A stretch of DNA of 22,454 nt from a virus: positions 1 through 22,454 of the IMG/VR virus record IMGVR_UViG_3300021424_000256. One strand, 5' to 3'. Below, in pieces: positions 1 to 21,920 of the stretch. The notes under the pieces were generated by a model. It saw only the letters and a list, made by a program, of their open reading frames with translations, did not search any database and was not told where the DNA came from. Positions within the stretch are counted from its first letter, which is position 1, and every line of letters begins with the position of its first letter. The translations under genes were made by a program, and so were the position numbers.

Positions 1-379
1 TGAAGAACCGCTTGTTCCAGACGAACCGCTAGTACCGTCAGTTCCAGAAGTACCACTAGAACCGCTCGTTCCAGAAGATCCACTCGTTCCAGATGAACCT
101 GAAGTACCTGAAGTTCCAGATGAACCACATGTACCACTTGTTCCAGATGGACCAGAAGTTCCTGAAGAACCGCTTGTTCCAGATGAACCTGAAGTGCCTG
201 AAGTTCCAGATGAACCAGATGTACCACTTGTTCCAGATGGACCAGAAGTTCCTGAAGAACCGCTTGTTCCAGACGAACCGCTAGTACCGTCAGTTCCAGA
301 AGTACCACTAGAACCGCTCGTTCCAGAAGATCCACTCGTTCCAGATGAACCTGAAGTACCTGAAGTTCCAGATGAACCA
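1..379. repeat. 127-bp perfect direct repeat, 252-bp offset, in collagen-like gene
   Basis: Bases 1-127 are identical to 253-379, with the first mismatch at 128 versus 380. The offset of 252 bases is 84 codons, so the duplication preserves reading frame and the Gly-X-Y register. The second copy continues with an extra 9-bp (one triplet unit) insertion. This is typical of repeat-length variation by slippage or recombination. Confidence 0.9.
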
Positions 380-663
380 GATGAACCAGATGTACCACTT
401 GTTCCAGATGGACCAGAAGTTCCTGAAGAACCGCTTGTTCCGGAAGAACCGCTTGTTCCGGAAAAACCGCTAGTGCCAGAAGCACCACTAGAACCGCTCG
501 TTCCAGAAGATCCACTTGTTCCAGAGGAACCGCTAGTACCCGAAGTACCACTTGTACCGGGAGGTCCCGTTTCTTTACCAACTGTAGAAATCGGTGGATT
601 TCCTACTAAATTAATATCAATAACATTTTTACTACTTTCAATCTTTACGTCAATTGAAGCCAT
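1..663 (-). CDS. Collagen-like Gly-X-Y repeat fibre protein (3' end outside window)
   Basis: The minus-strand frame is open from an ATG at 663 to the left edge, giving 221 codons with no stop, so the C-terminus lies outside the window. Residues 1-32 (MASIDVKIESSK...) are non-repetitive and probably form the virion-anchoring segment. From Gly33 to the edge every third residue is Gly, about 63 Gly-X-Y triplets, nearly all GTS or GSS, with a few GAS, GFS, GPS and GTD and one opening GPP. Such repeats are known from phage tail fibres and bacterial collagen-like proteins, where they form trimeric triple-helical stalks. Proline is almost absent, so Thr/Ser must supply stability, possibly through glycosylation. 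It follows the small gene at 668-997 by 4 bases. Plus-strand reading frames here (PEVPDEP-type) are antisense shadows. Fibre role likely; exact location in the virion unknown. Confidence 0.85.
   Translation of the reverse strand, partial: MASIDVKIESSKNVIDINLVGNPPISTVGKETGPPGTSGTSGTSGSSGTSGSSGTSGSSGASGTSGFSGTSGSSGTSGSSGTSGPSGTSGTSGSSGSSGTSGTSGSSGTSGSSGTSGSSGTSGTDGTSGSSGTSGSSGTSGPSGTSGTSGSSGTSGTSGSSGTSGSSGTSGPSGTSGTCGSSGTSGTSGSSGTSGSSGTSGSSGTSGTDGTSGSSGTSGSS
91..270. repeat. 90-bp tandem repeat, two copies, in collagen-like gene
   Basis: Bases 91-180 and 181-270 are adjacent 90-bp units (30 codons, ten Gly-X-Y triplets) that differ at only two positions, near 106/196 and 128/218. The high identity at synonymous positions points to a recent duplication. 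Confidence 0.85.
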
Positions 664-7021: not shown

Positions 7022-7702
7022 TTAAAAGTGACTTTTTAACTTATACATAAATACATTTTGATTTTCAAAAAATAAGTTTTTATCATATTTAGTCCAACCA
7101 AAATTCTTTAAAAAACCATCACAATACATGCCTTTTCCTAAAATATTATCTTTAGTTTCAAATCTTTCTGTTTTTCCATCTGAAAAAGTCCAGCTTATCC
7201 AAGTATTAGGTAAATAATTATCATCAATAGCTACTATACAATTTTCATTTAAATAAGGATACAACAACATCAATTCTGTAAAATGATGAATAGCAGATGG
7301 ATGAGGGTCTCTTAAATCAAAATCAAAAGAATCTAAAAAAACTAAATCAAAATCATTAATTATATTTTTATCTAAAGAATCTATTATTTTTAAACTATCT
7401 CCAAGACGATAATCTATAAAATCTTTATATTCTAAAGAATTTTTTTTACATTTATTCATATTGTTTTCATCAATATCTATTGTTGTTAATTTACCACCAG
7501 TAAAATTTTTAATTATTTCAGCAAAAAGGCAAGTCATCGTTTTAAATTGAGGTATACCATCCGTATGCCCACAACCAGTTTCTAAAATATTAATAGGTCG
7601 ATTTAAACTTATGAAATAATTAAATATATATTCAATAAATTTAATTCTGGATCCACCTAAAGCGTTTAACGAATTAATTTTATTTATAAATTGTTCTTTC
7701 AT
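7022..7702 (-). CDS. Class I SAM-dependent methyltransferase inserted in packaging module
   Basis: 226 residues with a Rossmann methyltransferase core: motif I ILETGCGHT (39-47), motif II acidic end TTIDIDENN (about 73-81), GDSLKIID (101-108), VFLDSFDF (121-128) and AIDDNY (158-163). The pattern is closest to the Methyltransf_24 / TylF-like O-methyltransferases that act on sugars or small metabolites; the AIDDN motif is typical of their metal-binding end. It starts one base after the terminase stop and ends 26 bases before the portal start, so it is co-transcribed with structural genes yet is not a known part of packaging. It is clearly AT-richer than the capsid genes, consistent with a moron-type insertion. 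A partner of the downstream glycan genes is possible. Confidence 0.85.
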   Translation of the reverse strand: MKEQFINKINSLNALGGSRIKFIEYIFNYFISLNRPINILETGCGHTDGIPQFKTMTCLFAEIIKNFTGGKLTTIDIDENNMNKCKKNSLEYKDFIDYRLGDSLKIIDSLDKNIINDFDLVFLDSFDFDLRDPHPSAIHHFTELMLLYPYLNENCIVAIDDNYLPNTWISWTFSDGKTERFETKDNILGKGMYCDGFLKNFGWTKYDKNLFFENQNVFMYKLKSHF

Positions 7703-7703
7703 T

Positions 7704-9566
7704 TTATAAAAACATTGGAGTAAAACTTTCTTGAATATTTTCTAATTGTATATTTTGCATATCAAAATAAATTTTTGACATCCAATTTCCCAAAACTAAA
7801 GCTGAATAACTATCTTTTCTAGGTTTATCTGGTCCTGTTTTTCTCTTTAGATTAGGAGGCAAATCGAAATTCTGCAAACCTTGAGCGGATGTGGTGATTT
7901 GTATTAAAGCGCATTCTGTTTTAGTTAACAATATCATATCTGATAAATGTTCTACAAAATCTATCATTTTAGCTTCTTCATTTTCTTTTTCAGAATCTAA
8001 AGAGTTAGAAAATTTTAAATTACCAATATTAATTTTTTGTCTAGTTTGACTTCTGAAATTATCATCAATAGCGCGGCCAGCAAAATAAGTTCTTTGATGA
8101 TCGAAATTAGCTTGAAGCAATTCGTTTGCTAAACGAATCCAAGTTGAAGTAGGTTTGCGAAGAACAACGTATTTGTAATCAGATTTATTGTATTCTGATT
8201 TTGCAGATAACAAGTTCTGTTGATATTCTTCAGGTCTTTCAAACTCAGTTGTGATTTGCTTTAAATTAATTTTAGCATCTTTGAATAGTTCGCTTTCATT
8301 ACAAGAGTTCATGAATTGAACGCCGCCGTTATAATCCATGCAAATGCCAATAACATTGAAGTGTGTTAATATATATAGAAAATACTGTATGTGATCTTTT
8401 AAAGAAGAACCTGATAAAGCATAAGAATGCACAAGAGTAGAAATTTGTTTTTCTCTATTAATCTTCAAAACTTGAATGGCAAAATCATCAGAGGATTCTG
8501 TTTCGGACCAAGAAGGGTCAACAGCTACGATATATTCATCTTCTGGCTTGCCAACTACTTCAACTGACGGCAATTCACCATCAGGTACAGTACAAAGAGC
8601 CATTTTAGAAATTTTAAAATAACCAGAACTATCATCAGTAAATTGAGCGCCAAACTCTCTCAAAAACTGAGATTCACTCATTGTTGATCGAGCTTGATTA
8701 ATTAGATTTTGATCGTAAAGCTGTTCAGGAGCGCAATCATAAGAGAACTGCATCACACATCTTTTTGTTCTTTCTTTATTTTTAGGATTAAAAATTAATT
8801 GTTCATATTGTTCATAAAGTTTATATAAATATTCAAATTTAAAAGAAGCGGATGACAAAGCTATCAGTTTGTTATTCGGCCATTGATAACGATCTTCTTC
8901 TTTCATTTGGCCTTGCTCAATTAATTTCGTTTCGACTTTATATAGATCTTCTCTTTGTGTTGGATTTTGTACAACAGACAAAAATGGAACAATAACTTCA
9001 TTATAAATACGTTCCGGCATCAATAAAAACTCGTCAATAATAATACGATGAAAACGGAAACCGCGAAGCTTTTCGCCATCACCTAAAGGTAGAGCGCGAA
9101 TACGACTTTTACCAATTTCCATCACCCATTCGTCATTACTTTTTGAAACATGAGTAATACATTGTTTTAATAAATAAGCTTCTGGCTTTGCTGCAATATC
9201 TTCAATCTTTTTAAATATCATTTTAGATTGACGAAAAGATCGAGATAAAATACCTATTTCTATACCTTGATTTAAAATAGCATCTAATACCGCATAAATA
9301 CCACACGTCCAGGATTTGGAAAGTCCACGGCTCCAAACAGCTAAAAAATAATCACTTTCCAACATGCCTTTAATAGCCATATGTTGAAATGGAAATAATT
9401 TTACTCCAGCAATTAAATCTGTCGCAAAAGTAATATTGTTTCGAAGAAATTGATAAAACAATAACTTCGCTTCGCGCTCTTCTATATGTCCAGGAATTTT
9501 CGCCAACTCTTCATTGGAGATTAAATGTGACTTCCTTGGTACTTGGCTGCCGTGATCCCAACTCAT
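7704..9566 (-). CDS. terL: Terminase large subunit (ATPase-nuclease)
   Basis: 620 residues, normal for a large terminase. The N-terminal ATPase has a deviant Walker A (WSRGLSKSW, 78-86, Lys84), where the usual Gly before Lys is Ser83, and a Walker B IIIDEF with Asp178/Glu179. The C-terminal RNase H-like nuclease shows the three acidic positions expected: VAVDPSWSE (Asp350), GICMDYNGG (Asp411) and HLSDMILL (Asp543). It drives DNA packaging into the procapsid and cuts the concatemer. The start at 9566 overlaps the upstream nuclease gene by 56 bases. The next in-frame Met is about 60 residues in, so this start is kept. No partner gene has an obvious small-terminase signature; the gene at 10464-11552 is the best candidate. 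Confidence 0.93.
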   Translation of the reverse strand: MSWDHGSQVPRKSHLISNEELAKIPGHIEEREAKLLFYQFLRNNITFATDLIAGVKLFPFQHMAIKGMLESDYFLAVWSRGLSKSWTCGIYAVLDAILNQGIEIGILSRSFRQSKMIFKKIEDIAAKPEAYLLKQCITHVSKSNDEWVMEIGKSRIRALPLGDGEKLRGFRFHRIIIDEFLLMPERIYNEVIVPFLSVVQNPTQREDLYKVETKLIEQGQMKEEDRYQWPNNKLIALSSASFKFEYLYKLYEQYEQLIFNPKNKERTKRCVMQFSYDCAPEQLYDQNLINQARSTMSESQFLREFGAQFTDDSSGYFKISKMALCTVPDGELPSVEVVGKPEDEYIVAVDPSWSETESSDDFAIQVLKINREKQISTLVHSYALSGSSLKDHIQYFLYILTHFNVIGICMDYNGGVQFMNSCNESELFKDAKINLKQITTEFERPEEYQQNLLSAKSEYNKSDYKYVVLRKPTSTWIRLANELLQANFDHQRTYFAGRAIDDNFRSQTRQKINIGNLKFSNSLDSEKENEEAKMIDFVEHLSDMILLTKTECALIQITTSAQGLQNFDLPPNLKRKTGPDKPRKDSYSALVLGNWMSKIYFDMQNIQLENIQESFTPMFL

Positions 9567-10467
9567 TATCTATAAAATATTGTATATCCACCTGCCATAA
9601 CTTACTACCATGATATAACAATTTAGGTATAATATCTAAAGATTTATTTCTATCACCAGTAAATACAAACTGAATTTTACGAGCATATTTATGGGATAAA
9701 TATCTCATATTATGAAAGACATATTCTAGACTCGTCTTTCTATGAAATTTTTTATGATTATATTTTATTTTTGCAATATTGCTCTCGACAACCACAAATA
9801 AATAACCATCTAAACCAACAGCTTTCTCTATTTCTCGTTCAAACCGCGCTAAACCTGAAGTCATAGTCCCTAAAAAATCAGACTCAGCTTTGCGATCTAC
9901 AAATGTATAACTATAATCTTTTTTATTTAATAAATAATCACCAACAAAAAGTTTTTCTATTTTTGTATTATTAAATTCTAATGGATCTTGTTCTCTTGTA
10001 TCAACAAGCATTTGTACATCAGACAAATCAATAGAATGAAAATCTTTTGGTATATTTTGATTAAATAAGGGCTCTAATCCAATTTGCTTACAAGCTAAAT
10101 TATAAGAATTAAAATGCTTCTTATAAATATTTATAGAAGGTAAATTCAAACTTATTAATTCATTTGAAAAAGGTGCGTATTTATATTCTTTTTCTTTTAT
10201 TCTAGCTTGAAGCATCTCAAGTATTTTGCTTTTGACAATTTCTTGTTTTTCGCTTTTCTCCCATAATAAGAATTCTTGTATATCCAAAAATTCGGTTTGG
10301 AAATATTCTTTTTTGTTTTTGTATGGAATTTGCTTTTTATAAAATAAAGAATATCGCGGATAATATTTACAATAATATTCTGCTTGATAAAGTTCATGTT
10401 TTTTTAAATGAGCGTGTAAGCTTTTATCATTTACAAATTCTTCGTTACATATTACGCATTTGGTCAT
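9511..10467 (-). CDS. C2H2 zinc finger fused to ERCC4/XPF-type nuclease
   Basis: 318 residues. Residues 4-24 are a perfect C2H2 finger (Cys4, Cys7, His20, His24). A basic helical middle (about 25-145) follows. Residues 150-270 have the ERCC4 nuclease signature: VDTREQD (Asp156, Arg158, Glu159), VGDYLL (Gly176, Asp177) and VDRKAESDF (Asp191, Arg192, Lys193), then FVVVE. ERCC4-family enzymes (XPF, Mus81, archaeal Hef) cut branched or flap DNA; the finger would supply DNA binding. It overlaps its upstream neighbour by 4 bases (ATGA) and terminase by 56, so it is translated with the packaging genes. Role in trimming branched concatemers before packaging is inference. A homing-endonuclease-like role is the alternative. 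Confidence 0.85.
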   Translation of the reverse strand: MTKCVICNEEFVNDKSLHAHLKKHELYQAEYYCKYYPRYSLFYKKQIPYKNKKEYFQTEFLDIQEFLLWEKSEKQEIVKSKILEMLQARIKEKEYKYAPFSNELISLNLPSINIYKKHFNSYNLACKQIGLEPLFNQNIPKDFHSIDLSDVQMLVDTREQDPLEFNNTKIEKLFVGDYLLNKKDYSYTFVDRKAESDFLGTMTSGLARFEREIEKAVGLDGYLFVVVESNIAKIKYNHKKFHRKTSLEYVFHNMRYLSHKYARKIQFVFTGDRNKSLDIIPKLLYHGSKLWQVDIQYFIDNELGSRQPSTKEVTFNLQ

Positions 10468-12634: not shown

Positions 12635-13381
12635 TTAGTGATTTTGAGTTTTATCTAATTTCTTAAGTGTATGTATGATATATTTCAAAATTTCACTTCT
12701 TAATATATCTTCTTCACTGAATTCAAAACAATGAATACCTTTTTCGCGACTTTCTTCAGTATTGAAGATGTCGTATATTTTCATAAAACCTGATTTATTA
12801 CCAACATCAGATTGCATAGAATCGCCACAAATAAACATCTTAGTATTTTCACCAATACGAGTGATGGCAGTAATTAATTCTTTAGTAGAAAAGTTTTGGC
12901 ATTCATCAATTAAAACAATCATGTCTTTCCATGTAGCGCCGCGCAAAAAATTAACTGGTAATGCTTCAATCATTTTTTGTTGTTCAAGATATTTAGTTTG
13001 ATTAAGAGGTATCAATTCGTCCAATTTGTCATATAGCGGTATCATAAATGGATTAAATTTTTCATCAACTGTACCGGGTAATGCACCCAAAGCTCTTTCT
13101 CCAGATTCAGCAATTGTTCTAATATATTTGATTTCAGAATAATTTCCGGTATTAAATAAATGCAAAGCACAATAAACCGCCAAAAATGTTTTTGAACTTC
13201 CGGCTGGTCCATTAATAAATACAATTTTACTATTTTTATCAAAAACAATATTTACTATCATCTTTTGCTTATCGGTTAATTTAAAATCTTTTATATTCAA
13301 TCGAACATGTTTGAATTGATTTTCATTAACTATTTCTTCAAGTTCTGGTTTAATGTGTTTTTTCTTCTTTTTATTTGACAT
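12635..13381 (-). CDS. phoH: PhoH-like ATPase
   Basis: 248 residues. After a Lys-rich N-terminus it has the full PhoH core: Walker A GPAGSSKTF (58-66, Lys64), GERALGALPGTVDEKFNPF (about 94-112), FLRGATWKD followed by Walker B IVLIDECQN (155-163), and FICGDSMQSD (sensor-type motif at about 183-192). The usual Walker A is GPAGTGKT; here the Gly before Lys is Ser63. PhoH-like proteins are widespread in phages, especially aquatic ones; proposed roles concern RNA metabolism or phosphate stress, and none is firm. It is the first gene of the minus-strand series. Its start is 26 bases from the divergent glycosyltransferase. Confidence 0.93.
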   Translation of the reverse strand: MSNKKKKKHIKPELEEIVNENQFKHVRLNIKDFKLTDKQKMIVNIVFDKNSKIVFINGPAGSSKTFLAVYCALHLFNTGNYSEIKYIRTIAESGERALGALPGTVDEKFNPFMIPLYDKLDELIPLNQTKYLEQQKMIEALPVNFLRGATWKDMIVLIDECQNFSTKELITAITRIGENTKMFICGDSMQSDVGNKSGFMKIYDIFNTEESREKGIHCFEFSEEDILRSEILKYIIHTLKKLDKTQNH

Positions 13382-13407: not shown

Positions 13408-14451
13408 ATGGTTTTTCACTGTTTAAGTATTCCTTATGCACCTACAAGGAAAGAGGTATCTTTATGCGCTTTTGTTCAAAAGGTATATAAGTTTTGTGAC
13501 GAAATGACTAAACGAGGTCATACTGTTTATCATTATGGTCACGAAAACTCTAATGTTAATTGTACTGAACATATAACTGTTACTAATGATAATATTTTAA
13601 AATTGTCATATGACAACTTAAATAGTTGGCAGCAAGTAGGTTTCAATCAAGATGTAGAAACACATGCTTTTAAAATTTTTAATCAAAATGCTATTCTTGA
13701 AATCAAAAAGAGATTAAAAACAAATAAAGATTTTATTATGTGTTGGTTTGGTTTTGGTCATTTAAAGACTGCTGAAACCTTTCAGAAACAAGCTATTGTT
13801 GTAGAACCTAGTATTGGATACGATTCGATGTTTGCGCCGGTTAAAATCTTTGAAACAAAAAGCCAGCTCCATAAAATGCATGGGCTGGCTCAAACAAATG
13901 TAGATTTTGAAAAAGAGTATGTTGTTTATCCAGGTTTTGATGCAAATGATTTTGAATACAAATCAACAAAATCTAATACAGCGTTATTTTTAGGTAGAAT
14001 CATACCGGAAAAAGGAGCGGGTCTTGTTTATGATATTTGTAATCATATACAGCAAGAAATTATTTTTGCTGGTCCAAATATAATGAAATTACAAGATACT
14101 AAATATTGTAAATTTGTGGGCTTTGTAGAACCAAATCAAAGAAAAAAATTATTAAGCAATGCAAAATTTTTATTTGCACCAAGTTTATTTATTGAGCCTT
14201 GTAATTGGACCGTCATTGAAGCTCAATTTTCAGGAACCCCAACAATAACAACGGATTTTGGCGGTTTTACAGAAACCGTATCACAATTAAGAACAGGATT
14301 TAGATGTTTTGATTCGCAAAGCATGATTCATAGTATATTCAATATAAATAAAATAGATCCATCAGAATGTTATAAAAACGCAATCAATAAATTTACAATA
14401 ACAAATCAGTGTGACAATTATGAAAATATTTTTAAATCATTTATACATTGA
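13408..14451 (+). CDS. GT4-family glycosyltransferase
   Basis: 347 residues, GT-B fold. The N-terminal half starts MVFHCLSIPYAPTRKEV and has GHTVYHYG (38-44). The C-terminal Glycosyl_transf_1 half has FLGRIIPEKGAG (194-205), IIFAGPNI (218-225) and the donor-binding/catalytic segment FIEPCNWTVIEAQFSGTPTI (261-280, Glu263 and Glu271) followed by GGFTETV. GT4 enzymes transfer a sugar from a nucleotide donor with retention of configuration; donor and acceptor cannot be read here. It is the only convincing plus-strand gene in the AT-rich part. It diverges from the phoH-like gene, and its 3' end overlaps the convergent GT9 gene by 34 bases. It carries a strong hairpin within codons 152-161. Confidence 0.9.
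   Translation: MVFHCLSIPYAPTRKEVSLCAFVQKVYKFCDEMTKRGHTVYHYGHENSNVNCTEHITVTNDNILKLSYDNLNSWQQVGFNQDVETHAFKIFNQNAILEIKKRLKTNKDFIMCWFGFGHLKTAETFQKQAIVVEPSIGYDSMFAPVKIFETKSQLHKMHGLAQTNVDFEKEYVVYPGFDANDFEYKSTKSNTALFLGRIIPEKGAGLVYDICNHIQQEIIFAGPNIMKLQDTKYCKFVGFVEPNQRKKLLSNAKFLFAPSLFIEPCNWTVIEAQFSGTPTITTDFGGFTETVSQLRTGFRCFDSQSMIHSIFNINKIDPSECYKNAINKFTITNQCDNYENIFKSFIH
13861..13890. repeat. Inverted repeat inside the GT4 gene
   Basis: AGCCAGC-T-CCAT ... ATGG-GCTGGCT forms an 11-bp stem with one bulged base and a 7-base loop within coding sequence. It is far richer in G/C than its surroundings. No T-run follows on either strand, so it is not an ordinary terminator. Confidence 0.7.
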
Positions 14452-15251
14452 TCTATTTTTTCCTTGACCATTTCAAATGTTATTGTTTTTGTGCATTCAA
14501 AATTTTTGCTCCTAGGACACCACATCCAATTACTAGAATCAAATTTTTCTTCATTAAAGCATCCATGACAAACTTTTTCGTTATCAATTCTATAAATATC
14601 TTTTTTAAATTCACACCAATTTTTTGTAACATTAGAAATCAATACAACTTTTTTATTAACTCCATGAGCAAGCCAAGTTAAACCATTCGATGTTCCAAGA
14701 TGAAATTCCGCATGATACAAGTAATTGCAACAATTTTCTAAATCTAATCCACATCTATTAATGCTTTTTTTAGGTATATAGTTTAAATTTTTACCATTTC
14801 CAAAAGATTCGTATTTATCTATACAAACTGTAGAAATATTATATTTATCTTTTAAATATTTTATTACGAAATCCCAACCATTTATAAAATTCCAATATCT
14901 ACCTTGATGACTGGACTGCATTGATAATGTAACATATCTTTGTTTAATATTTCTTGGTTTTATATTAAAAGAAATATTTGTATTACTTTATTCAAAAGCT
15001 AAACCCAAATCATCTGAATATCCTTTTTGCAAAGGTTGATCAAAATGAAAATGTATTTCTTTATATTCATCAAAAACATCAGTATCTTTAAATAAAATAT
15101 TTGGATAAGCCTTTTCAAAAAGATGTATCAAATTTTTATTTATTAAATAATAAACAGTGTTTTTAGTGATTTTTTGATACCGATCTACTTGACATACGGA
15201 TCCGATAGTATCTCCTAATGCTGAAGAAGTGTTTTTAATTTTTACTATCAT
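14418..15251 (-). pseudogene. GT9/BAHT-type heptosyltransferase-like gene split by in-frame TAA
   Basis: One continuous minus-strand frame of 278 codons, broken only by TAA at 14988-14990 (codon 88). Both halves align with the GT9 domain (residues about 1226-1535) of the giant enzyme: upstream SSALGDTIGSVCQVDRYQKI with GSLGDNIAWVPVVDHFQKI, downstream RYVTLSMQSSHQGRYWNFIN with KYVCIGSLSTCQAKFWNNPD. The Cys pattern Cx2Cx13Cx7C (codons 228, 231, 245, 253) and FECTKTITFEMV match the iron-finger type of bacterial autotransporter heptosyltransferases. Start chosen at ATG 15251 (MIVKIKN), which aligns with the GT9 domain start and overlaps the upstream gene by 17 bases; ATG 15266 is also possible. 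The halves could be two genes, a nonsense mutant, a readthrough product or a sequencing error. Confidence 0.8.
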
Positions 15252-15612
15252 ATATTTCGTAACCAATCTTAGTTTCTGTTATTTTATTTGGAAAAAATTT
15301 ATTTTGAAATTCTTTTTTAGCTATATATCTTTCATAATTGCATTTATCAACATATTCAGCGGTAACTTCATTAGACTTGGCTTTTTCTACAGCATGAAAT
15401 GTTTTTAAATTTGCGGTTTCTATATTTTTAAATTCTTGAGAATGCATAATATTGTTCCACAAATCATCATTATTGACTTGAATTTTTAAAAAATCATAAC
15501 ATTTTTTCCAATTATTAAAAGGTTGGCCAAAGAAATTATGTTTTTCGCTTTTAATATATAAAATGGTTAAATAATCAAAGGCGTAAGCTTCATCTACTTC
15601 TATATTTATCAT
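15235..15612 (-). CDS. Small companion protein of the glycan cluster, unknown
   Basis: 125 residues, charged, no membrane segment. The opening IEVDEAYAFDYLTILYIKSEKH, a central LWNNIMHSQEFKNIE and the end RYIAKKEFQNKF ... TETKIGYE loosely recall the small DUF6165-type proteins often found beside glycosyltransferases, which open with a 'DKITILEIK' helix. That resemblance is from memory and tentative. It starts 9 bases after the giant enzyme's stop and overlaps the GT9 gene, so the three probably share a transcript. Leader ATTTAATTATATG, no SD. Confidence 0.6.
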   Translation of the reverse strand: MINIEVDEAYAFDYLTILYIKSEKHNFFGQPFNNWKKCYDFLKIQVNNDDLWNNIMHSQEFKNIETANLKTFHAVEKAKSNEVTAEYVDKCNYERYIAKKEFQNKFFPNKITETKIGYEIYDSKN

Positions 15613-15621
15613 ATAATTAAA

Positions 15622-18600
15622 TTAATATTTTTTCTCTACTTTGTCAATATATGAATACCCATCAAATTCAAAACATATTTCATCTGTATTGAACTTCAAG
15701 AATTTTTGTTTTTCTTTTTCAAAAGAAAGGTTCAACCACCAATCAAAAGCGTGCCAACCATACTTTTCGATTATGTATTTAAAATAATATTTATGTTTTT
15801 TTGAAAAAATATACAAATAAGTTCCCCACATACAATCGATTTCATAGATGTTTTCATGAATTTTTTTATTTAAATCTATTCCGTGAACCGATTTTCCAAA
15901 TGTAAATATTTTATAATCAGTTTCATCTAAAACTCTAATCGCTTCATCAAAATATTTTTTGAAATTTTGCGGATCAACTAATATTTTTGCATCACCTTCG
16001 GCAATAACTAAATAATCATAATCATTTTCATCATTAAAAAATTCTAAAATAGCGTCGATGTGAGCTTTATAACATCCATAATGACGCGCTGTCAAACCAA
16101 ATTCATCATGTTTTTTATCTAATTCAATCCAATGATTGTTGTTTTCAAAAACTTGTATTTTTTCAGGAATTTCATTGTATAATATCGAATCTTTTATTGA
16201 GTAATTAAAATTTTCAATCAAGGAAAATGATGACTTTATATTTTCAATAGATAAAAGCTCTTTTTTTCCCTTTCTATCACAAATCAAGTGTTTTAAAAGG
16301 ATTTTTGGTTTTTCAATATCTTTAATTAACAAATTAATTTTTTCTTTAACCATTTCAAAAGAAATTTCTTTTGTACATTCAAAATTTTTATTTCGTGGAC
16401 ACCAAGCCCAATTATTTTTATCGAAATATATATTTATATCATTCCAACAACTGTTGCATACGTTTTTATTATGAACTCTATATGGAGTATGAAATTCTGA
16501 TTTAGGGTCAGAAAATCCAGAAATCATTATAACTGGTTTATTTAAGCCCCAGGCCAACCAACTTAAACCCGATCCTAAACCAATAAAAAATTCACAAAAA
16601 TATAAATCATTAATTCGATCTGATAATGGTTTATCGCCAGTTTCATCGATTGAATTAAATGGGATATGATTAATATGTTCACCATATCCTATGTTGTTAT
16701 TTTTATCAATAGAAATAACTTCATATCCTAAAGATTTAACATAATCCACAATTTGATTCCAACCATCAGGATTATTCCAAAATTTAGCTTGACAAGTAGA
16801 TAAAGAGCCTATGCATACATATTTTTTATTAAATTTATTTTTTAAATTATCTGGTAATGAAATTTTTGGTTGAATTTCAAAATATTCTAAACCTAAAATT
16901 TTAAAAGCTAATTCTTGTAAATTAAATTGATTCCATCTAATTCCATTTACATCAAAACAACCTAACGAATAATCTGAATTAATTGGCTTTTCATTGTAAT
17001 TATGAAATTCAATATTAGGATATGTTTTTTCAAATAATTCTTTATAAGGAGTATAATATTTAATTTTGCAATTTTTAATTTTTTGAAAATGATCTACCAC
17101 AGGAACCCACGCTATATTATCACCCAAAGATCCCGATTCATTAACTATGTGAATTGTTTTTTCTTGAAAAGCGTAAATAATACCTTTTTTATCTGAAAGG
17201 CTGTCAGTTGCTTGACATTGTAAATTATAACCTTCTATATGAAAACCATTATCTTTAAGTTTTTTTATAATACAGTCATTTAAAATTGCGCCATCATTAT
17301 GATGATACTCTATTATAAAAGATTTAATTTTCTTGATTATTTCATTATTTAAAGATTTAAATATTTTGTATTCAAATCCTTCAATATCCATTTTTAATAA
17401 ATCAACTGTTTGCAAACAATGTTTTTCCAAAAGAGTTTCTAAATTAATTGATTTAATTTTTAACGCATTGAAATTTTTATGTTTGAAATTATTTTCATAA
17501 TCAGCTTCTTTTTGTTTTTCTATATCAAAAGAAGTTAACGTGGAATCCTCACATGTTATTAATTCAATTTCTCCATTTTCATTTGATAAAGCCTGATTTT
17601 CGCAAAAAACGTTATTAAAATCACAAAAAGTTTTTTGTAAAACATCAAAAGACTTCGATGGTTCTAAAGCTATAATTTTTTTAGCTTTTCTAGATAAACA
17701 AAAATCAGCAAAAGTTCCACAACTAGCACCGATATCTATAATAATCATGTTCTCTTTTACCGCTTTTTTATAAAAAGGTTTGGAATAAAAATCCAAACTC
17801 TGGGAAAAGAAATTATCATGCAAAGCCAAATCTGTTTCTGGATCAAAGACGAATTGAACCGCATGTTTATTTTTTTTGAAAGTTTTATCAATCGGTATTT
17901 CAATATTAAATAGTAATTTGTTATTTTTATAAGCGATAAATTTGAAACCAGTAAAAATATCTAAATCAAGTTTTTGATCTTTAGTTGGATAAATATTATA
18001 TTCCCAACCTCTTATAATCGAAAAATCTTTTCGATTAAAAATAGAACATAAATTTAAATTTTTTCTCAAATCTTTTGCAATCAATATCACATCTTTAATA
18101 TCTTTAGATGTATAATAATATAAAGTATTGTTTTGTTTATCGTATTTAAAAGACAATCCAGAAAGATCAATAGATTTATCACAATAAATTGTATCAAAAT
18201 TTAAATTTATCAACGACGATTGTTCATTCTTCTCTAAAGATGTGCTAATTACTTCGTTTTTTACTGAGAAAAACAGATTATCTTTTTCATCGTAAACGTT
18301 AAAAACTACTGGTCCTGTAATGTTTTTAGTATTATTTAATGCTGAAAAATACTCACAATTACCGTCTAACCAAAAAGAATCTTCATAAAGACAAAAATTT
18401 GTTTTTTCATCAAAAAATTTAATTTTAGCTTTTACATTAAAAATAGAATTATTTCTGTATTCGATTCCTAATTTATTATCTGTGAATTTAACAAATGAAA
18501 CATTTTTATTATTTAATTCCATAAAATTATTAAAAGCTATTTTTGCTGACTTGACCCATGAAAAATTATCTCGAATAAAATGAGATTCTTCAATTGATTT

Positions 18601-20832
18601 TTCTAAAAATTTATTATAGTTTTGGTATACGTCCAACATTTTCTTTTTCAAGTCTTCAAAATCAGGAATGTAGTAATCTCCTTGAACATTTTTACAGAAT
18701 TGCTCTGAAATATAATTACTAGCATTTTCTGTATTCTTGATTTTAACTGGAATACCACGGTTTTTAGCAAACTCCAATTGCGCACTACATTCAGAATAAA
18801 TAGATGGAACGCCACACGCCATTGCTTCAATTAATGGTAGATTCCAACCTTCAGCTTTAGAACAAGATAAAAATACATGAATCGATTTTAAATGATCAAT
18901 ATAATCTTCACGATTTAAAAAATTTAATATTTTAATATTTTCACTTTCCAAATCAAAATGTTTTAAACGATTATGAGTGCTTTTTAAACCATCAATATCA
19001 TGAGGATTATCAACAGAAAGTAATAATTCAACGTTTTTGTTATTGCCAAATGATTCTTTGAAACATCTGATAATGCTCTTTGTGCTTTTTCTTTCGTCCC
19101 ATCTTCCAAAAATAGCAAAAGTAAATTTATTCTTTAATTTTTTATTTTCTAAATTAAAGATTTTAGAATCCACACCTAAAGGCACAACTTTAATTTTATC
19201 TTTGGGTAAATCTTGTTTAATCAAGCATTCTTTCTGCCATTCAGATGGAACCCAAATTTGATTAAATGTTTTTAATTGTTTTACGAAATCATTTGGAAAT
19301 TCAGTAGTTTCATACATTGTGTATGCAATTTTAGGACCACGGTAATTTTCATAAAAATAATAATGATTTAATTCATTAATGATTAAATTAACTTGCGGTT
19401 CAAAATTTGCAGTATAATTATAAATAGGAAAATCACTCCTAGAATGATCTGAATTATATAAAGTTTGAAGATGAAGAATTTTTTTATGCTCGTCTTCTAT
19501 ATCTAAATCGTGAGGTGTTGAATTATAACCTTTCCAACCGTGAGCAACTGTATAATTTCGAACTTTTACATTACATAAATTATTTAACTCTGGAAGTAAA
19601 TTTTGACACAAAGAATTAAATCCTCCAGTACCCACAAAACTACAATGAGTTAATACCTTTAAATTGTTTTTATCTAATTCAGACAAATGTTCCATAGCAA
19701 TATCCGCCGCATTTTCCCAAGTAAAAACTTTTCTTATATCATTTGATTCTTCTAAAGCTTTATTTTTATAAAAATCATAATTACGATAAACTTCAAGCAT
19801 TTGTTTTTTTAAATCTTCAAAGTCCGGCTCACACCAATAACCAGGAGAATTTTGATTTTTATTTTGTTCGAAATCTTCAGCCAAAACAAGATTTTTTATT
19901 TTAACTGGAATGCCTTTATTTTGTGCAAATTCTAATTGCCCACCATAATTTGAATAAATAGAAGGCGTACCACATGCCATCGCTTCTATTAATGGAATAT
20001 TCCAACCTTCTCCCCTTGCACAAGATAGAAAAACATGACCTCTTTGAAGATATGATATATAATCTTCTTGATTAGGGAAATTTAATATTTTGATGTTGGG
20101 GGCTGATAAATTATATTTTTTTAATCGTTCTTCTGTATTAGAACATCCGTCATTATAAAACCCGTTTTCAACTGATAAAATCAATTCAACATTTTTATCA
20201 TGTTTGAATAAATCAATAAAACATTGAATTATTTCTTTTGTACTTTTTCTGTCTGACCACGCACCGAAAATAATAAATCTAAATTTATTGTCGTTATATT
20301 TTGTTTTTTTAGGAAAATAAATTTTAGAATCAACAGCCTCTGGTACAACTTTAATTTTTCCAGCAAAAAACCCTTGCTCAACAAGCATTTGAGCCTGCCA
20401 TTTTGAAGCCACCCAAACTTGATCAAATTCTTTTAATTTTTCAAAAAAATTATTTGGATATAAAGAGTTCTCCCAAACATTATACGCTATTTTATAACCT
20501 TTATAAGAATCATAAAAATAATAATGATCAACAGTATTTAATATAATATTAACATCAGGAACAAAAGATGAATCATAATTATAAAGTGGAAAATCCTTTC
20601 GTTCTTTTTCTGGCGTCCATAAAGTTTGCTGATGTAATAATTTTTTATCTAAATCATTAACATCTGAACCATGAGGATTACCATCTTCGCAAGGATAACC
20701 TTTCCAATTTTTACCGATAGTAAAATTTCTGATTTTTAAATTGGTTTTTTCACTAAGTTTTCTAAAAAAACCTTGAGAGTGGGCGTTATATCCTGTTTTT
20801 CCAACATGGCTCGTATGAGCTAAAATATTCAT
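15622..20832 (-). CDS. Giant multidomain glycan enzyme: GT4-GT4-beta-FkbM-GT9-GT25-like
   Basis: 1736 residues in one frame. Domains: (1) GT4, 1-390, EGWNIPLIEAMACG with Glu275/Glu283; (2) a second GT4, 391-777, EGWNLPLIEAMACG with Glu661/Glu669, clearly a tandem duplicate; (3) a beta-rich linker, 778 to about 1010, resembling the beta-sandwich that precedes GT9 modules in autotransporter heptosyltransferases; (4) FkbM-type methyltransferase, about 1015-1225, DIGASCGT (1033-1040) and LLKMDIEGFE (Asp1149, Glu1151); (5) GT9, 1226 to about 1535, GSLGD (1234-1238) and Cys1459/1462/1478/1486 in the iron-finger spacing; (6) GT25-like, about 1540-1736, TARHYGCYKAH (Cys1587) and VIAEGDAK (1610-1616) where EDD is usual. 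No signal peptide or membrane segment, so cytoplasmic. It should build and methylate a short glycan; acceptor unknown. Its own promoter lies just upstream. Confidence 0.9.
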   Translation of the reverse strand: MNILAHTSHVGKTGYNAHSQGFFRKLSEKTNLKIRNFTIGKNWKGYPCEDGNPHGSDVNDLDKKLLHQQTLWTPEKERKDFPLYNYDSSFVPDVNIILNTVDHYYFYDSYKGYKIAYNVWENSLYPNNFFEKLKEFDQVWVASKWQAQMLVEQGFFAGKIKVVPEAVDSKIYFPKKTKYNDNKFRFIIFGAWSDRKSTKEIIQCFIDLFKHDKNVELILSVENGFYNDGCSNTEERLKKYNLSAPNIKILNFPNQEDYISYLQRGHVFLSCARGEGWNIPLIEAMACGTPSIYSNYGGQLEFAQNKGIPVKIKNLVLAEDFEQNKNQNSPGYWCEPDFEDLKKQMLEVYRNYDFYKNKALEESNDIRKVFTWENAADIAMEHLSELDKNNLKVLTHCSFVGTGGFNSLCQNLLPELNNLCNVKVRNYTVAHGWKGYNSTPHDLDIEDEHKKILHLQTLYNSDHSRSDFPIYNYTANFEPQVNLIINELNHYYFYENYRGPKIAYTMYETTEFPNDFVKQLKTFNQIWVPSEWQKECLIKQDLPKDKIKVVPLGVDSKIFNLENKKLKNKFTFAIFGRWDERKSTKSIIRCFKESFGNNKNVELLLSVDNPHDIDGLKSTHNRLKHFDLESENIKILNFLNREDYIDHLKSIHVFLSCSKAEGWNLPLIEAMACGVPSIYSECSAQLEFAKNRGIPVKIKNTENASNYISEQFCKNVQGDYYIPDFEDLKKKMLDVYQNYNKFLEKSIEESHFIRDNFSWVKSAKIAFNNFMELNNKNVSFVKFTDNKLGIEYRNNSIFNVKAKIKFFDEKTNFCLYEDSFWLDGNCEYFSALNNTKNITGPVVFNVYDEKDNLFFSVKNEVISTSLEKNEQSSLINLNFDTIYCDKSIDLSGLSFKYDKQNNTLYYYTSKDIKDVILIAKDLRKNLNLCSIFNRKDFSIIRGWEYNIYPTKDQKLDLDIFTGFKFIAYKNNKLLFNIEIPIDKTFKKNKHAVQFVFDPETDLALHDNFFSQSLDFYSKPFYKKAVKENMIIIDIGASCGTFADFCLSRKAKKIIALEPSKSFDVLQKTFCDFNNVFCENQALSNENGEIELITCEDSTLTSFDIEKQKEADYENNFKHKNFNALKIKSINLETLLEKHCLQTVDLLKMDIEGFEYKIFKSLNNEIIKKIKSFIIEYHHNDGAILNDCIIKKLKDNGFHIEGYNLQCQATDSLSDKKGIIYAFQEKTIHIVNESGSLGDNIAWVPVVDHFQKIKNCKIKYYTPYKELFEKTYPNIEFHNYNEKPINSDYSLGCFDVNGIRWNQFNLQELAFKILGLEYFEIQPKISLPDNLKNKFNKKYVCIGSLSTCQAKFWNNPDGWNQIVDYVKSLGYEVISIDKNNNIGYGEHINHIPFNSIDETGDKPLSDRINDLYFCEFFIGLGSGLSWLAWGLNKPVIMISGFSDPKSEFHTPYRVHNKNVCNSCWNDINIYFDKNNWAWCPRNKNFECTKEISFEMVKEKINLLIKDIEKPKILLKHLICDRKGKKELLSIENIKSSFSLIENFNYSIKDSILYNEIPEKIQVFENNNHWIELDKKHDEFGLTARHYGCYKAHIDAILEFFNDENDYDYLVIAEGDAKILVDPQNFKKYFDEAIRVLDETDYKIFTFGKSVHGIDLNKKIHENIYEIDCMWGTYLYIFSKKHKYYFKYIIEKYGWHAFDWWLNLSFEKEKQKFLKFNTDEICFEFDGYSYIDKVEKKY

Positions 20833-21237: not shown

Positions 21238-21558
21238 TTAAACGTCTTCTTTAGCTATAAACTCTTTAATCATTGTAGTAAAAAATTTCTCAAATCCTAG
21301 TTTTTTAATACACTCACTGATTTTTTTAGAAGCAACCATCTTGCCCACAATTTCACCCTCTATATAATCATATTCATCATCGTCATCATCTATTGTAAAT
21401 ATATGGGGATTATCGACTTTTAATATAATAACTTCTATAGTAGTTAAATCACCATCATAATGAGAAAATGATATTTTGCGCTTATAGATACCCTCATCAT
21501 CCGGTATCGCCGCCATTTTATGTCCGCGACCGTCTTTATATATTAACACATAGTTCAT
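21238..21558 (-). CDS. Unknown acidic small protein
   Basis: 106 residues from ATG 21558, chosen over ATG 21582 because it overlaps the upstream stop as TAATG, a coupling signal, and reads MNYVLIYKDGRGH. The middle contains an acidic run TIDDDDDEYDYIEGEIVGKM. The C-terminal half is helical (KKISECIKKLGFEKFFTTMI). No membrane segment. It is translated with the HNH nuclease gene and may be an accessory or inhibitor protein, but nothing in the sequence decides this. Confidence 0.6.
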   Translation of the reverse strand: MNYVLIYKDGRGHKMAAIPDDEGIYKRKISFSHYDGDLTTIEVIILKVDNPHIFTIDDDDDEYDYIEGEIVGKMVASKKISECIKKLGFEKFFTTMIKEFIAKEDV

Positions 21559-21920
21559 TATATAATATAATCGTTGTAACAACCAGTATTTAAATAATTA
21601 ATTGCACTATATAACAAATCAACATCATCATTAAAACGTCCTATGCCTAAATTACAACTATTACATATATATCCTCTAAAAGAATCAGTAAAGTGGCAAT
21701 GATCTAATATCCAAGATTCAGTGTGTTGATGGCAGATGGGACATGGTCCCGGAGGAGGTGGGGGGTTCTGTAATTTCAACTTACTTCTTATATTAGACAG
21801 ATGTCGGGCGCAATGAATACATGTATTCTTTCTACCAGCTTTATTTGTTGAAAAGAACGGAAATTCTTCTATATTTCTTTCTATATGACAACAACGGCAT
21901 TTTTTTTGAGATATTACCAT
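21558..21920 (-). CDS. Endonuclease VII-type HNH nuclease
   Basis: 120 residues. N-terminal CxxC pairs Cys8/Cys11 and Cys34/Cys37 could bind one zinc. After a Pro run (PPPPPGP) comes the endonuclease VII core: CPIC (Cys60, Cys63), LDHCH (Asp73, His74), FRGYICNSCNLGIGRF (Cys86, Cys89, Asn90) and a C-terminal helix YSAINYL. This reproduces the zinc and Asp-His...Asn active-site arrangement of T4 endonuclease VII, which resolves Holliday junctions and debranches DNA before packaging. Many phages carry extra copies that act as free-standing mobile nucleases, so either role is possible. It is first in a three-gene unit with its own promoter. Confidence 0.9.
   Translation of the reverse strand: MVISQKKCRCCHIERNIEEFPFFSTNKAGRKNTCIHCARHLSNIRSKLKLQNPPPPPGPCPICHQHTESWILDHCHFTDSFRGYICNSCNLGIGRFNDDVDLLYSAINYLNTGCYNDYII

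What the first reader, a model, noticed from the sequence alone, without database searches (positions are those of the whole stretch)
15622..20832. Single-chain phage glycan assembly line with six modules
One 1736-codon frame joins two tandem GT4 domains, a beta-rich domain, an FkbM methyltransferase, a GT9 domain with an iron-finger Cys pattern and a GT25-like domain. Each has readable catalytic or binding motifs. I know of no described phage protein with this order. Fusion implies ordered, channelled synthesis and O-methyl capping of one glycan. The GT25-like domain has AEGD where EDD is usual, so its activity is uncertain.
Basis: partly seen in the sequence, partly recalled or inferred. Interest (0 to 1): 0.85.

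Follow-up and report, generated by a model that had tools for sequence, protein, structure and literature searches.

The report
Single-chain phage glycan-building enzyme
A freshwater phage makes one giant enzyme out of six fused parts that probably builds a methyl-capped sugar chain on its own Ser/Thr-rich, collagen-like particle protein, and its close relatives carry shuffled versions of the same parts at the same genome position, as if each phage wore a different sugar coat.

Summary
The frame is real: one 1736-codon ORF on the MINUS strand (15622-20832). It recurs in a near-identical contig and full length at 70% identity in another metagenome, under purifying selection, so it is not an assembly fusion. 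The "odd" AEGD is normal for this branch: E and D are invariant in 63 of 63 homologues, and the nearest solved fold is human collagen galactosyltransferase (GT25).

The complete order occurs in two lineages; seven further distinct sequences lack only GT25. More striking, all 30 relatives with enough flank (terminases 82-100% identical pairwise) carry TibC modules at the same locus, in about 18-24 arrangements, fused or as separate genes: a hypervariable modular glycosylation locus.

Likely acceptor: a Gly-X-Y collagen-like protein with 92% Ser/Thr at X/Y (window 1-663). Viral contigs chosen only for such repeats carry TibC domains in 25 of 50, against 0 of 50 random contigs. Sugars, donor, acceptor site and reaction order remain inferred. 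Viral analogues exist (PBCV-1 A064R; mimivirus L230), so this is a new variant of a known kind.

The parts
15622..20832 (-). 1736-codon ORF, six-module glycosyltransferase/methyltransferase
   Evidence: same protein in L002 and, at 70% identity, in L003
19675..20832 (-). module 1: GT4 glycosyltransferase (aa 1-386), EX7E at E275
   Evidence: PF00534 E 1.7e-26 (2 stretches), phrog_2170 E 1.9e-65; motifs
18514..19662 (-). module 2: GT4 glycosyltransferase (aa 391-773), tandem duplicate of module 1 (51% identical), EX7E at E661
17788..18507 (-). module 3: beta region (aa 776-1015), probably two small beta domains; the first may be the displaced N-terminal barrel of the TibC module
   Evidence: AF2 pLDDT 66-87 for the first ~90 residues only, low afterwards; Foldseek weak, includes TibC over 83 columns; both halves match the region N-terminal of other viral FkbM domains (hhalign prob. 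95%); L017 has beta-1 directly before TibC
17188..17766 (-). module 4: FkbM-family SAM-dependent O-methyltransferase (aa 1023-1215)
   Evidence: TIGR01444 73.6 bits (cut-off 37.7), PF05050 E 2.9e-15
16315..17169 (-). module 5: TibC-type O-heptosyltransferase catalytic domain (aa 1222-1506): D1238, T1346, K1350, R1406, W1425, Cys 1459/1462/1478/1486
   Evidence: TIGR04414 287.9 bits > 200; PDB 4rap E 3.4e-61; residue map against PMC4358343
15625..16314 (-). module 6: GT25-type GT-A glycosyltransferase (aa 1507-1736), E1612-x-D1614
   Evidence: AF2 pLDDT 91.5, pTM 0.90; Foldseek top hit COLGALT1/GLT25D1 E 1.1e-8; E and D invariant in 63/63
14418..15266 (-). separate TibC-only paralogue, interrupted by one in-frame TAA (intact in L003, 286 aa)
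13408..14451 (+). 347-aa GT4 gene (phrog_3408), conserved partner at the right border of the variable locus
1..663 (-). candidate acceptor: collagen-like Gly-X-Y ORF (63 triplets, 92% Ser/Thr at X/Y), runs off the window end
   Evidence: same kind of ORF at the same position in 18 of 19 relatives with enough flank

Best explanation
A phage-encoded, single-chain O-glycan builder for a virion protein. The TibC-type domain puts the first sugar, probably a heptose or related sugar from a host ADP-sugar, onto Ser/Thr of the phage's own collagen-like Gly-X-Y(S/T) protein. The two GT4 domains and the GT25 domain extend it, and the FkbM domain adds an O-methyl group. The locus is a hypervariable cassette that relatives rebuild by swapping, adding, splitting and fusing modules, so each phage would make its own glycan. 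Shown here: the modules, intact active-site residues, purifying selection, the shuffled syntenic locus, and co-occurrence of TibC domains with Ser/Thr-saturated collagen-like repeats. Inferred: activity of each module, donor, acceptor site, order of steps, and benefit (shielding or altered host recognition).
For: Modules. All five TibC donor/base residues and all four iron-finger Cys are kept (PMC4358343 shows that D110, K230, R286, W305 and each Cys are needed, and that TibC heptosylates TibA and AIDA-I). Selection. Rosetta-stone evidence: the same modules occur fused or as separate neighbours at one locus in 30 of 30 relatives; pairwise median identity is terminase 89%, PhoH 75%, best-matching TibC 49%. 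Acceptor: window ORF 1-663 has 92% S/T at X/Y; 18 of 19 relatives have the same kind of ORF 6.4-7.1 kb after terminase. Contigs picked only for GTSGTSGxS repeats carry TIGR04414 in 25/50 (20/24 of those >=60 kb) against 0/50 random (0/18), p about 1e-9; PhoH, as a control for large aquatic phages, is 12/50 against 4/50; FkbM is 16/50 against 1/50. Giant S/T-G repeat genes lie next to several GT4-TibC genes. Precedent: PBCV-1 A064R has two GT domains plus a methyltransferase in one viral chain (PMC9614988).
Against: No biochemistry. The collagen-like gene is about 15 kb from the enzyme in this window, not adjacent. Co-occurrence contigs are not independent lineages and the random control is not matched for habitat. 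TibC needs its N-terminal beta-barrel (PMC4358343), which does not sit directly before the catalytic domain here. The TibC thumb tip (F265/V266) is replaced by E/H. Only 1 of 36 TibC-bearing records encodes a full-score ADP-heptose adenylyltransferase domain and none encodes gmhA, so the donor would have to come from the host and may not be heptose. Published views of related phage GTs favour host O-chain modification (PMC7029224).
Confidence: 0.58

Rival explanations
1. The enzyme remodels the host's surface glycan (LPS O-chain) to block superinfection or alter phage adsorption, rather than decorating the virion.
For: This is the published interpretation for glycosyltransferases in the variable host-recognition cluster of SAR11 myophages (PMC7029224). 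GT4 and heptosyltransferase folds are common in LPS synthesis.
Against: The TibC domain belongs to the protein-O-heptosyltransferase family (score over the TIGR04414 cut-off) and matches LPS heptosyltransferase models only weakly (TIGR02195 16.1 bits against a cut-off of 134.6). No polymerase or flippase gene was recognised among the window ORFs. TibC domains track Ser/Thr-saturated collagen-like phage proteins.
Confidence: 0.2
2. A virion-protein glycosylating enzyme, but the acceptor is another structural protein (capsid, tail fibre) and the collagen-like gene is merely a fellow traveller of the same phage group.
For: The collagen-like gene is not adjacent to the enzyme here. The structural genes lie in the same window, and phage tail proteins are often Ser/Thr-rich.
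Against: The association holds across contigs of very different size chosen only for the repeats, and the repeats are absent from 120 random viral loci (0 by the S/T-G criterion; 1 Gly-X-Y ORF with 34% S/T).
Confidence: 0.17
3. It glycosylates modified phage DNA bases to evade restriction.
For: Phage glycosyltransferases of T4 type do this; the role is often assumed for aquatic phages (PMC10202952).
Against: No base-hydroxylating or hypermodification gene was recognised among the window ORFs. TibC is protein-directed, and four transferases plus a methyltransferase are more than a base needs. Extreme module variability fits a surface glycan better.
Confidence: 0.03
4. Assembly or frameshift artefact joining separate genes.
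For: The neighbouring TibC paralogue is interrupted by a stop, so errors or decay exist nearby.
Against: The frame recurs in a separate contig (99.9% nt) and at 70% aa identity in another metagenome with purifying selection in every module; five-module versions occur in further contigs.
Confidence: 0.01

Closest known systems
TibC / AAH bacterial autotransporter heptosyltransferases (BAHT; TIGR04414; PDB 4RAP, 4RB4)
   Same: Catalytic GT-B core with the D110 base, T226/K230/R286/W305 donor residues and four-Cys iron finger all conserved
   Different: Fused to five other modules; FkbM sits between the beta region and the catalytic domain; thumb-tip residues not kept; residue 300 is Gly, neither Pro nor Ser; no autotransporter partner seen
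Microcystis phage Mel-JY01 protein WWT39291 (1226 aa, GenBank name 'methyltransferase FkbM')
   Same: GT4 first, Methyltransf_24 in the middle, TibC catalytic domain last; lies a short way after a Ser/Thr-Gly repeat protein
   Different: One GT4, a different methyltransferase family, its own TibC_1st barrel, no GT25
Chlorovirus PBCV-1 A064R (and A111/114R)
   Same: Single viral protein with two glycosyltransferases plus an O-methyltransferase building and capping the end of a capsid glycan (PMC9614988; PMC7826918)
   Different: Algal giant virus, N-glycan, unrelated GT families, 3 domains not 6; no TibC module
Mimivirus L230 and animal COLGALT1/GLT25D1 (GT25)
   Same: GT25-type domain; viral collagen-like proteins as acceptor (PMC9614988); COLGALT1 is the top fold match to module 6
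   Different: Acts on hydroxylysine; L230 carries a lysyl hydroxylase; the phage repeats have Ser/Thr instead
Host-recognition cluster of pelagimyophages (PMC7029224)
   Same: Hypervariable, glycosyltransferase-rich region in conserved aquatic phage genomes
   Different: That cluster sits between VrlC and gp14 and its GTs are mostly GT8; here the locus lies beside PhoH and is TibC-based. Synteny to that cluster was not established

Membership tests
TibC/AAH heptosyltransferase (TIGR04414, BAHT) | Scores above the curated family cut-off | tested here: met
   287.9 bits against 200
TibC/AAH heptosyltransferase (TIGR04414, BAHT) | Catalytic base D110 and donor residues T226, K230, R286, W305 | tested here: met
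   D1238, T1346, K1350, R1406, W1425
TibC/AAH heptosyltransferase (TIGR04414, BAHT) | Four-cysteine iron finger | tested here: met
   C1459, C1462, C1478, C1486
TibC/AAH heptosyltransferase (TIGR04414, BAHT) | N-terminal beta-barrel directly before the catalytic domain | tested here: not met
   FkbM domain precedes it; a displaced barrel at aa 776-865 is possible
TibC/AAH heptosyltransferase (TIGR04414, BAHT) | Hydrophobic thumb tip (F265, V266) for dodecamer assembly | tested here: not met
   E1385, H1386
TibC/AAH heptosyltransferase (TIGR04414, BAHT) | Uses ADP-heptose, acceptor Ser of an autotransporter | not testable with these tools
   No autotransporter recognised among the window ORFs; candidate acceptor is collagen-like
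GT25 | GT-A fold nearest to GT25 enzymes | tested here: met
   COLGALT1 top hit, E 1.1e-8, TM 0.67
GT25 | Acidic metal-binding E-x-D motif | tested here: met
   E and D invariant in 63/63; middle residue G, C, N or A
GT25 | Sequence match to a curated GT25 profile | tested here: not met
   No Pfam GT25 hit for the whole protein at E <= 1
FkbM methyltransferase | Score above curated cut-off and SAM motif | tested here: met
   TIGR01444 73.6 bits (cut-off 37.7); DIGASCG
GT4 | Pfam GT4-type match and EX7E motif, twice | tested here: met
   PF00534 two stretches; E275 and E661
A064R-type viral glycan assembly protein (works like) | Several GTs plus an O-methyltransferase in one chain acting on a virion glycoprotein | tested here: inconclusive
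   Architecture met; activity and acceptor not testable; no homology claimed

The most novel reading that the evidence does not exclude
A phage 'glycotype' system: a conserved genome position where single-chain enzymes are continually rebuilt from TibC, GT4, GT25 and FkbM modules to put a phage-specific, methyl-capped O-glycan on a Ser/Thr-saturated collagen-like virion protein. This would extend TibC-type protein O-glycosylation from bacterial autotransporters to phage particles, with serotype-like diversity between close relatives.
Probability: 0.45. Interest if true: 0.83.

Novelty: new variant of a known kind. Interest (0 to 1): 0.68.

Why it matters
If true, common aquatic phages carry their own protein O-glycosylation machinery with near serotype-like diversity, encoded in one chain. 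It would explain why giant Ser/Thr-Gly repeat proteins and TibC-like 'autotransporter' enzymes turn up together in phage genomes. It gives a concrete, testable acceptor for phage glycosyltransferases usually assigned to host O-antigen or DNA, and offers natural multi-enzyme chains for glycan engineering.

Tried and rejected
Assembly fusion: rejected.

GT25 inactive because of AEGD: rejected.

Beta region as TibC N-terminal barrel: suggestive only. AF2 is poor beyond residue ~90; Foldseek is dominated by generic beta-sandwiches, with TibC at rank 47; hhalign to bacterial TibC barrels fails (prob. 5%), while both halves match the region before viral FkbM domains (prob. 95%).

Phage-made ADP-heptose: not general (1 of 36 records with a full-score HldE-type domain; gmhA 0 of 36).

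Generic Gly-X-Y pattern as a control set: mostly off-target; the 13 true Gly-X-Y loci have 0-28% S/T, so it is biased and not used as evidence.

Defence system: no PADLOC hit. Nearest cultured phages by the presumed capsid or portal gene: none; the terminase hits only distant phages at about 24-31% identity, so the host is unknown.

Literature for phage TibC or a phage collagen-like glycosylation system: no direct hit in the open library.

Full report
Observation. The finding's coordinates hold a single ATG-started ORF of 1736 codons on the minus strand. The record is a 22,454-base virus contig with PhoH (12635-13381), terminase large subunit (7704-9566, phrog_2) and, inferred from gene order only, portal, protease/scaffold and capsid-type genes downstream. 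The same region exists as another IMG/VR contig at 99.9% nt over 16 kb (L002). In a different metagenome a 1733-aa protein with all six modules is 70% identical (L003). Between window and L003 every module is under purifying selection (dN/dS about 0.14-0.5). The fusion is therefore a real gene.

Modules. GT4 twice (PF00534, 2 stretches; phrog_2170; 51% identical to each other: a tandem duplication). A beta region of about 240 aa. FkbM methyltransferase (TIGR01444, PF05050). Mapping the residues that the TibC paper tested (PMC4358343) shows D110, T226, K230, R286, W305 and all four iron-finger Cys conserved, but the thumb-tip pair F265/V266 is E/H and the stereoselectivity residue P300 is G. 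The C-terminal module has no Pfam hit but folds confidently (pLDDT 91.5), and its best solved match is COLGALT1/GLT25D1, a GT25 enzyme. Across 63 homologues E and D of E-x-D are invariant and the middle residue is G, C, N or A, so AEGD is the rule in this branch.

How common is it? TibC-type domains are widespread in viral contigs (485 confirmed stretches in one scan). Among ORFs in the fetched loci: GT4-TibC (82), GT4-GT4-beta-FkbM-TibC (7 distinct sequences, 1490-1495 aa), the full six-module order (two lineages), FkbM-TibC-GT25 preceded by a GT4 and a GT2 (L023; L315 has the same size and C-terminal half), TibC-TibC, TibC-FkbM-TibC, TibC-GT25 and others. In the bacterial genome contigs fetched, all 97 TibC ORFs had none of the other four modules.

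A hypervariable locus. Using the window's terminase, 80 loci of the same phage group were fetched. All 30 with at least 5.4 kb upstream of PhoH carry TibC modules at that place, in 24 distinct module strings; some strings are cut by contig ends, so about 18 is a conservative count. In some relatives GT4, TibC, TibC and FkbM are separate adjacent genes; in others they are fused. On 120 sampled pairs the median identity is terminase 89%, PhoH 75%, best-matching TibC 49%. The five-module loci belong to the same group (terminase 81-83%). L017 has GT4-GT4-beta1-TibC without beta2-FkbM, showing clean module gain or loss. This is strong evidence that the modules work together (Rosetta-stone) and suggests pressure to diversify. 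It argues against reading the reaction order from the chain order.

Candidate acceptor. At the far end of the window, ORF 1-663 (minus, running off the contig) is a Gly-X-Y collagen-like protein: 63 triplets with 92% Ser/Thr at X and Y. In the phage group, 18 of 19 contigs that reach far enough have such an ORF 6.4-7.1 kb after terminase; complete copies end in a short non-repetitive C-terminal domain. No S/T-G repeat ORF was found in 120 random viral loci, and only one Gly-X-Y ORF with 34% S/T; among 154 unique viral TibC loci 49 have a Gly-X-Y ORF. For a test that does not start from TibC, contigs were picked only for GTSGTSGxS coding DNA and whole records searched for TIGR04414: 25 of 50 above cut-off, 20 of 24 for records of 60 kb or more, against 0 of 50 and 0 of 18 for random contigs (Fisher p about 1e-9 and 2e-8). 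PhoH, a control for large aquatic phages, rises only from 4 to 12 of 50, FkbM from 1 to 16. Records are not phylogenetically independent and the random set is not habitat-matched; I did not correct for this.

Mechanism (inferred). TibC-type catalysis on Ser/Thr of the collagen-like protein, extension by GT4/GT4/GT25, O-methyl capping by FkbM. Donor biosynthesis is not generally phage-encoded, so host nucleotide sugars are needed; whether the first sugar is heptose is open. The best functional precedent is chlorovirus A064R, where two GT domains and one methyltransferase in one protein build the end of the capsid glycan and mutations define antigenic classes (PMC9614988). Mimivirus L230 shows that a viral GT25-type domain can glycosylate viral collagen-like protein (same source). 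The main rival is host O-chain modification, the reading given for GTs of SAR11 myophages (PMC7029224).

Verdict. Real, intact and more interesting in context than as a single protein: one allele of a modular, hypervariable phage glycosylation locus with a good acceptor candidate. New variant of a known kind.

Noticed in passing
window 14418-15266 (minus): A second, stand-alone TibC-type gene directly downstream of the big ORF is split by one in-frame TAA in the window and in L002; L003 has an intact 286-aa copy. It looks like a decaying paralogue.
   Followed up: partly
window 15235-15612 (minus): 125-aa ORF between the two TibC genes with no Pfam or PHROG match; no ORF of this kind lies between the two genes in L003.
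   Followed up: no
window 7022-7702 (minus): A methyltransferase-like gene (Methyltransf_24/Methyltransf_3, phrog_24975) lies between terminase and the presumed portal gene; L003 has no gene there.
   Followed up: partly
L003:644-5161: Upstream of its six-module protein L003 carries four more genes: FkbM, PLOD-type GT, Methyltransf_24 and a DUF6625 protein; the window has none of them there.
   Followed up: partly
window 21558-21920 (minus): Endonuclease VII-like protein at the left border of the variable locus; a possible driver of module exchange (speculation).
   Followed up: no
window 9511-10467 (minus): ERCC4-type nuclease with an N-terminal zinc-finger-like motif whose frame overlaps the start of the terminase gene.
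   Followed up: no
L208:940-9171 and L204:13162-21150: Ser/Thr-Gly repeat ORFs of 2744 and 2663 aa lie within about 1 kb of GT4-TibC or TibC genes in other aquatic phages.
   Followed up: partly
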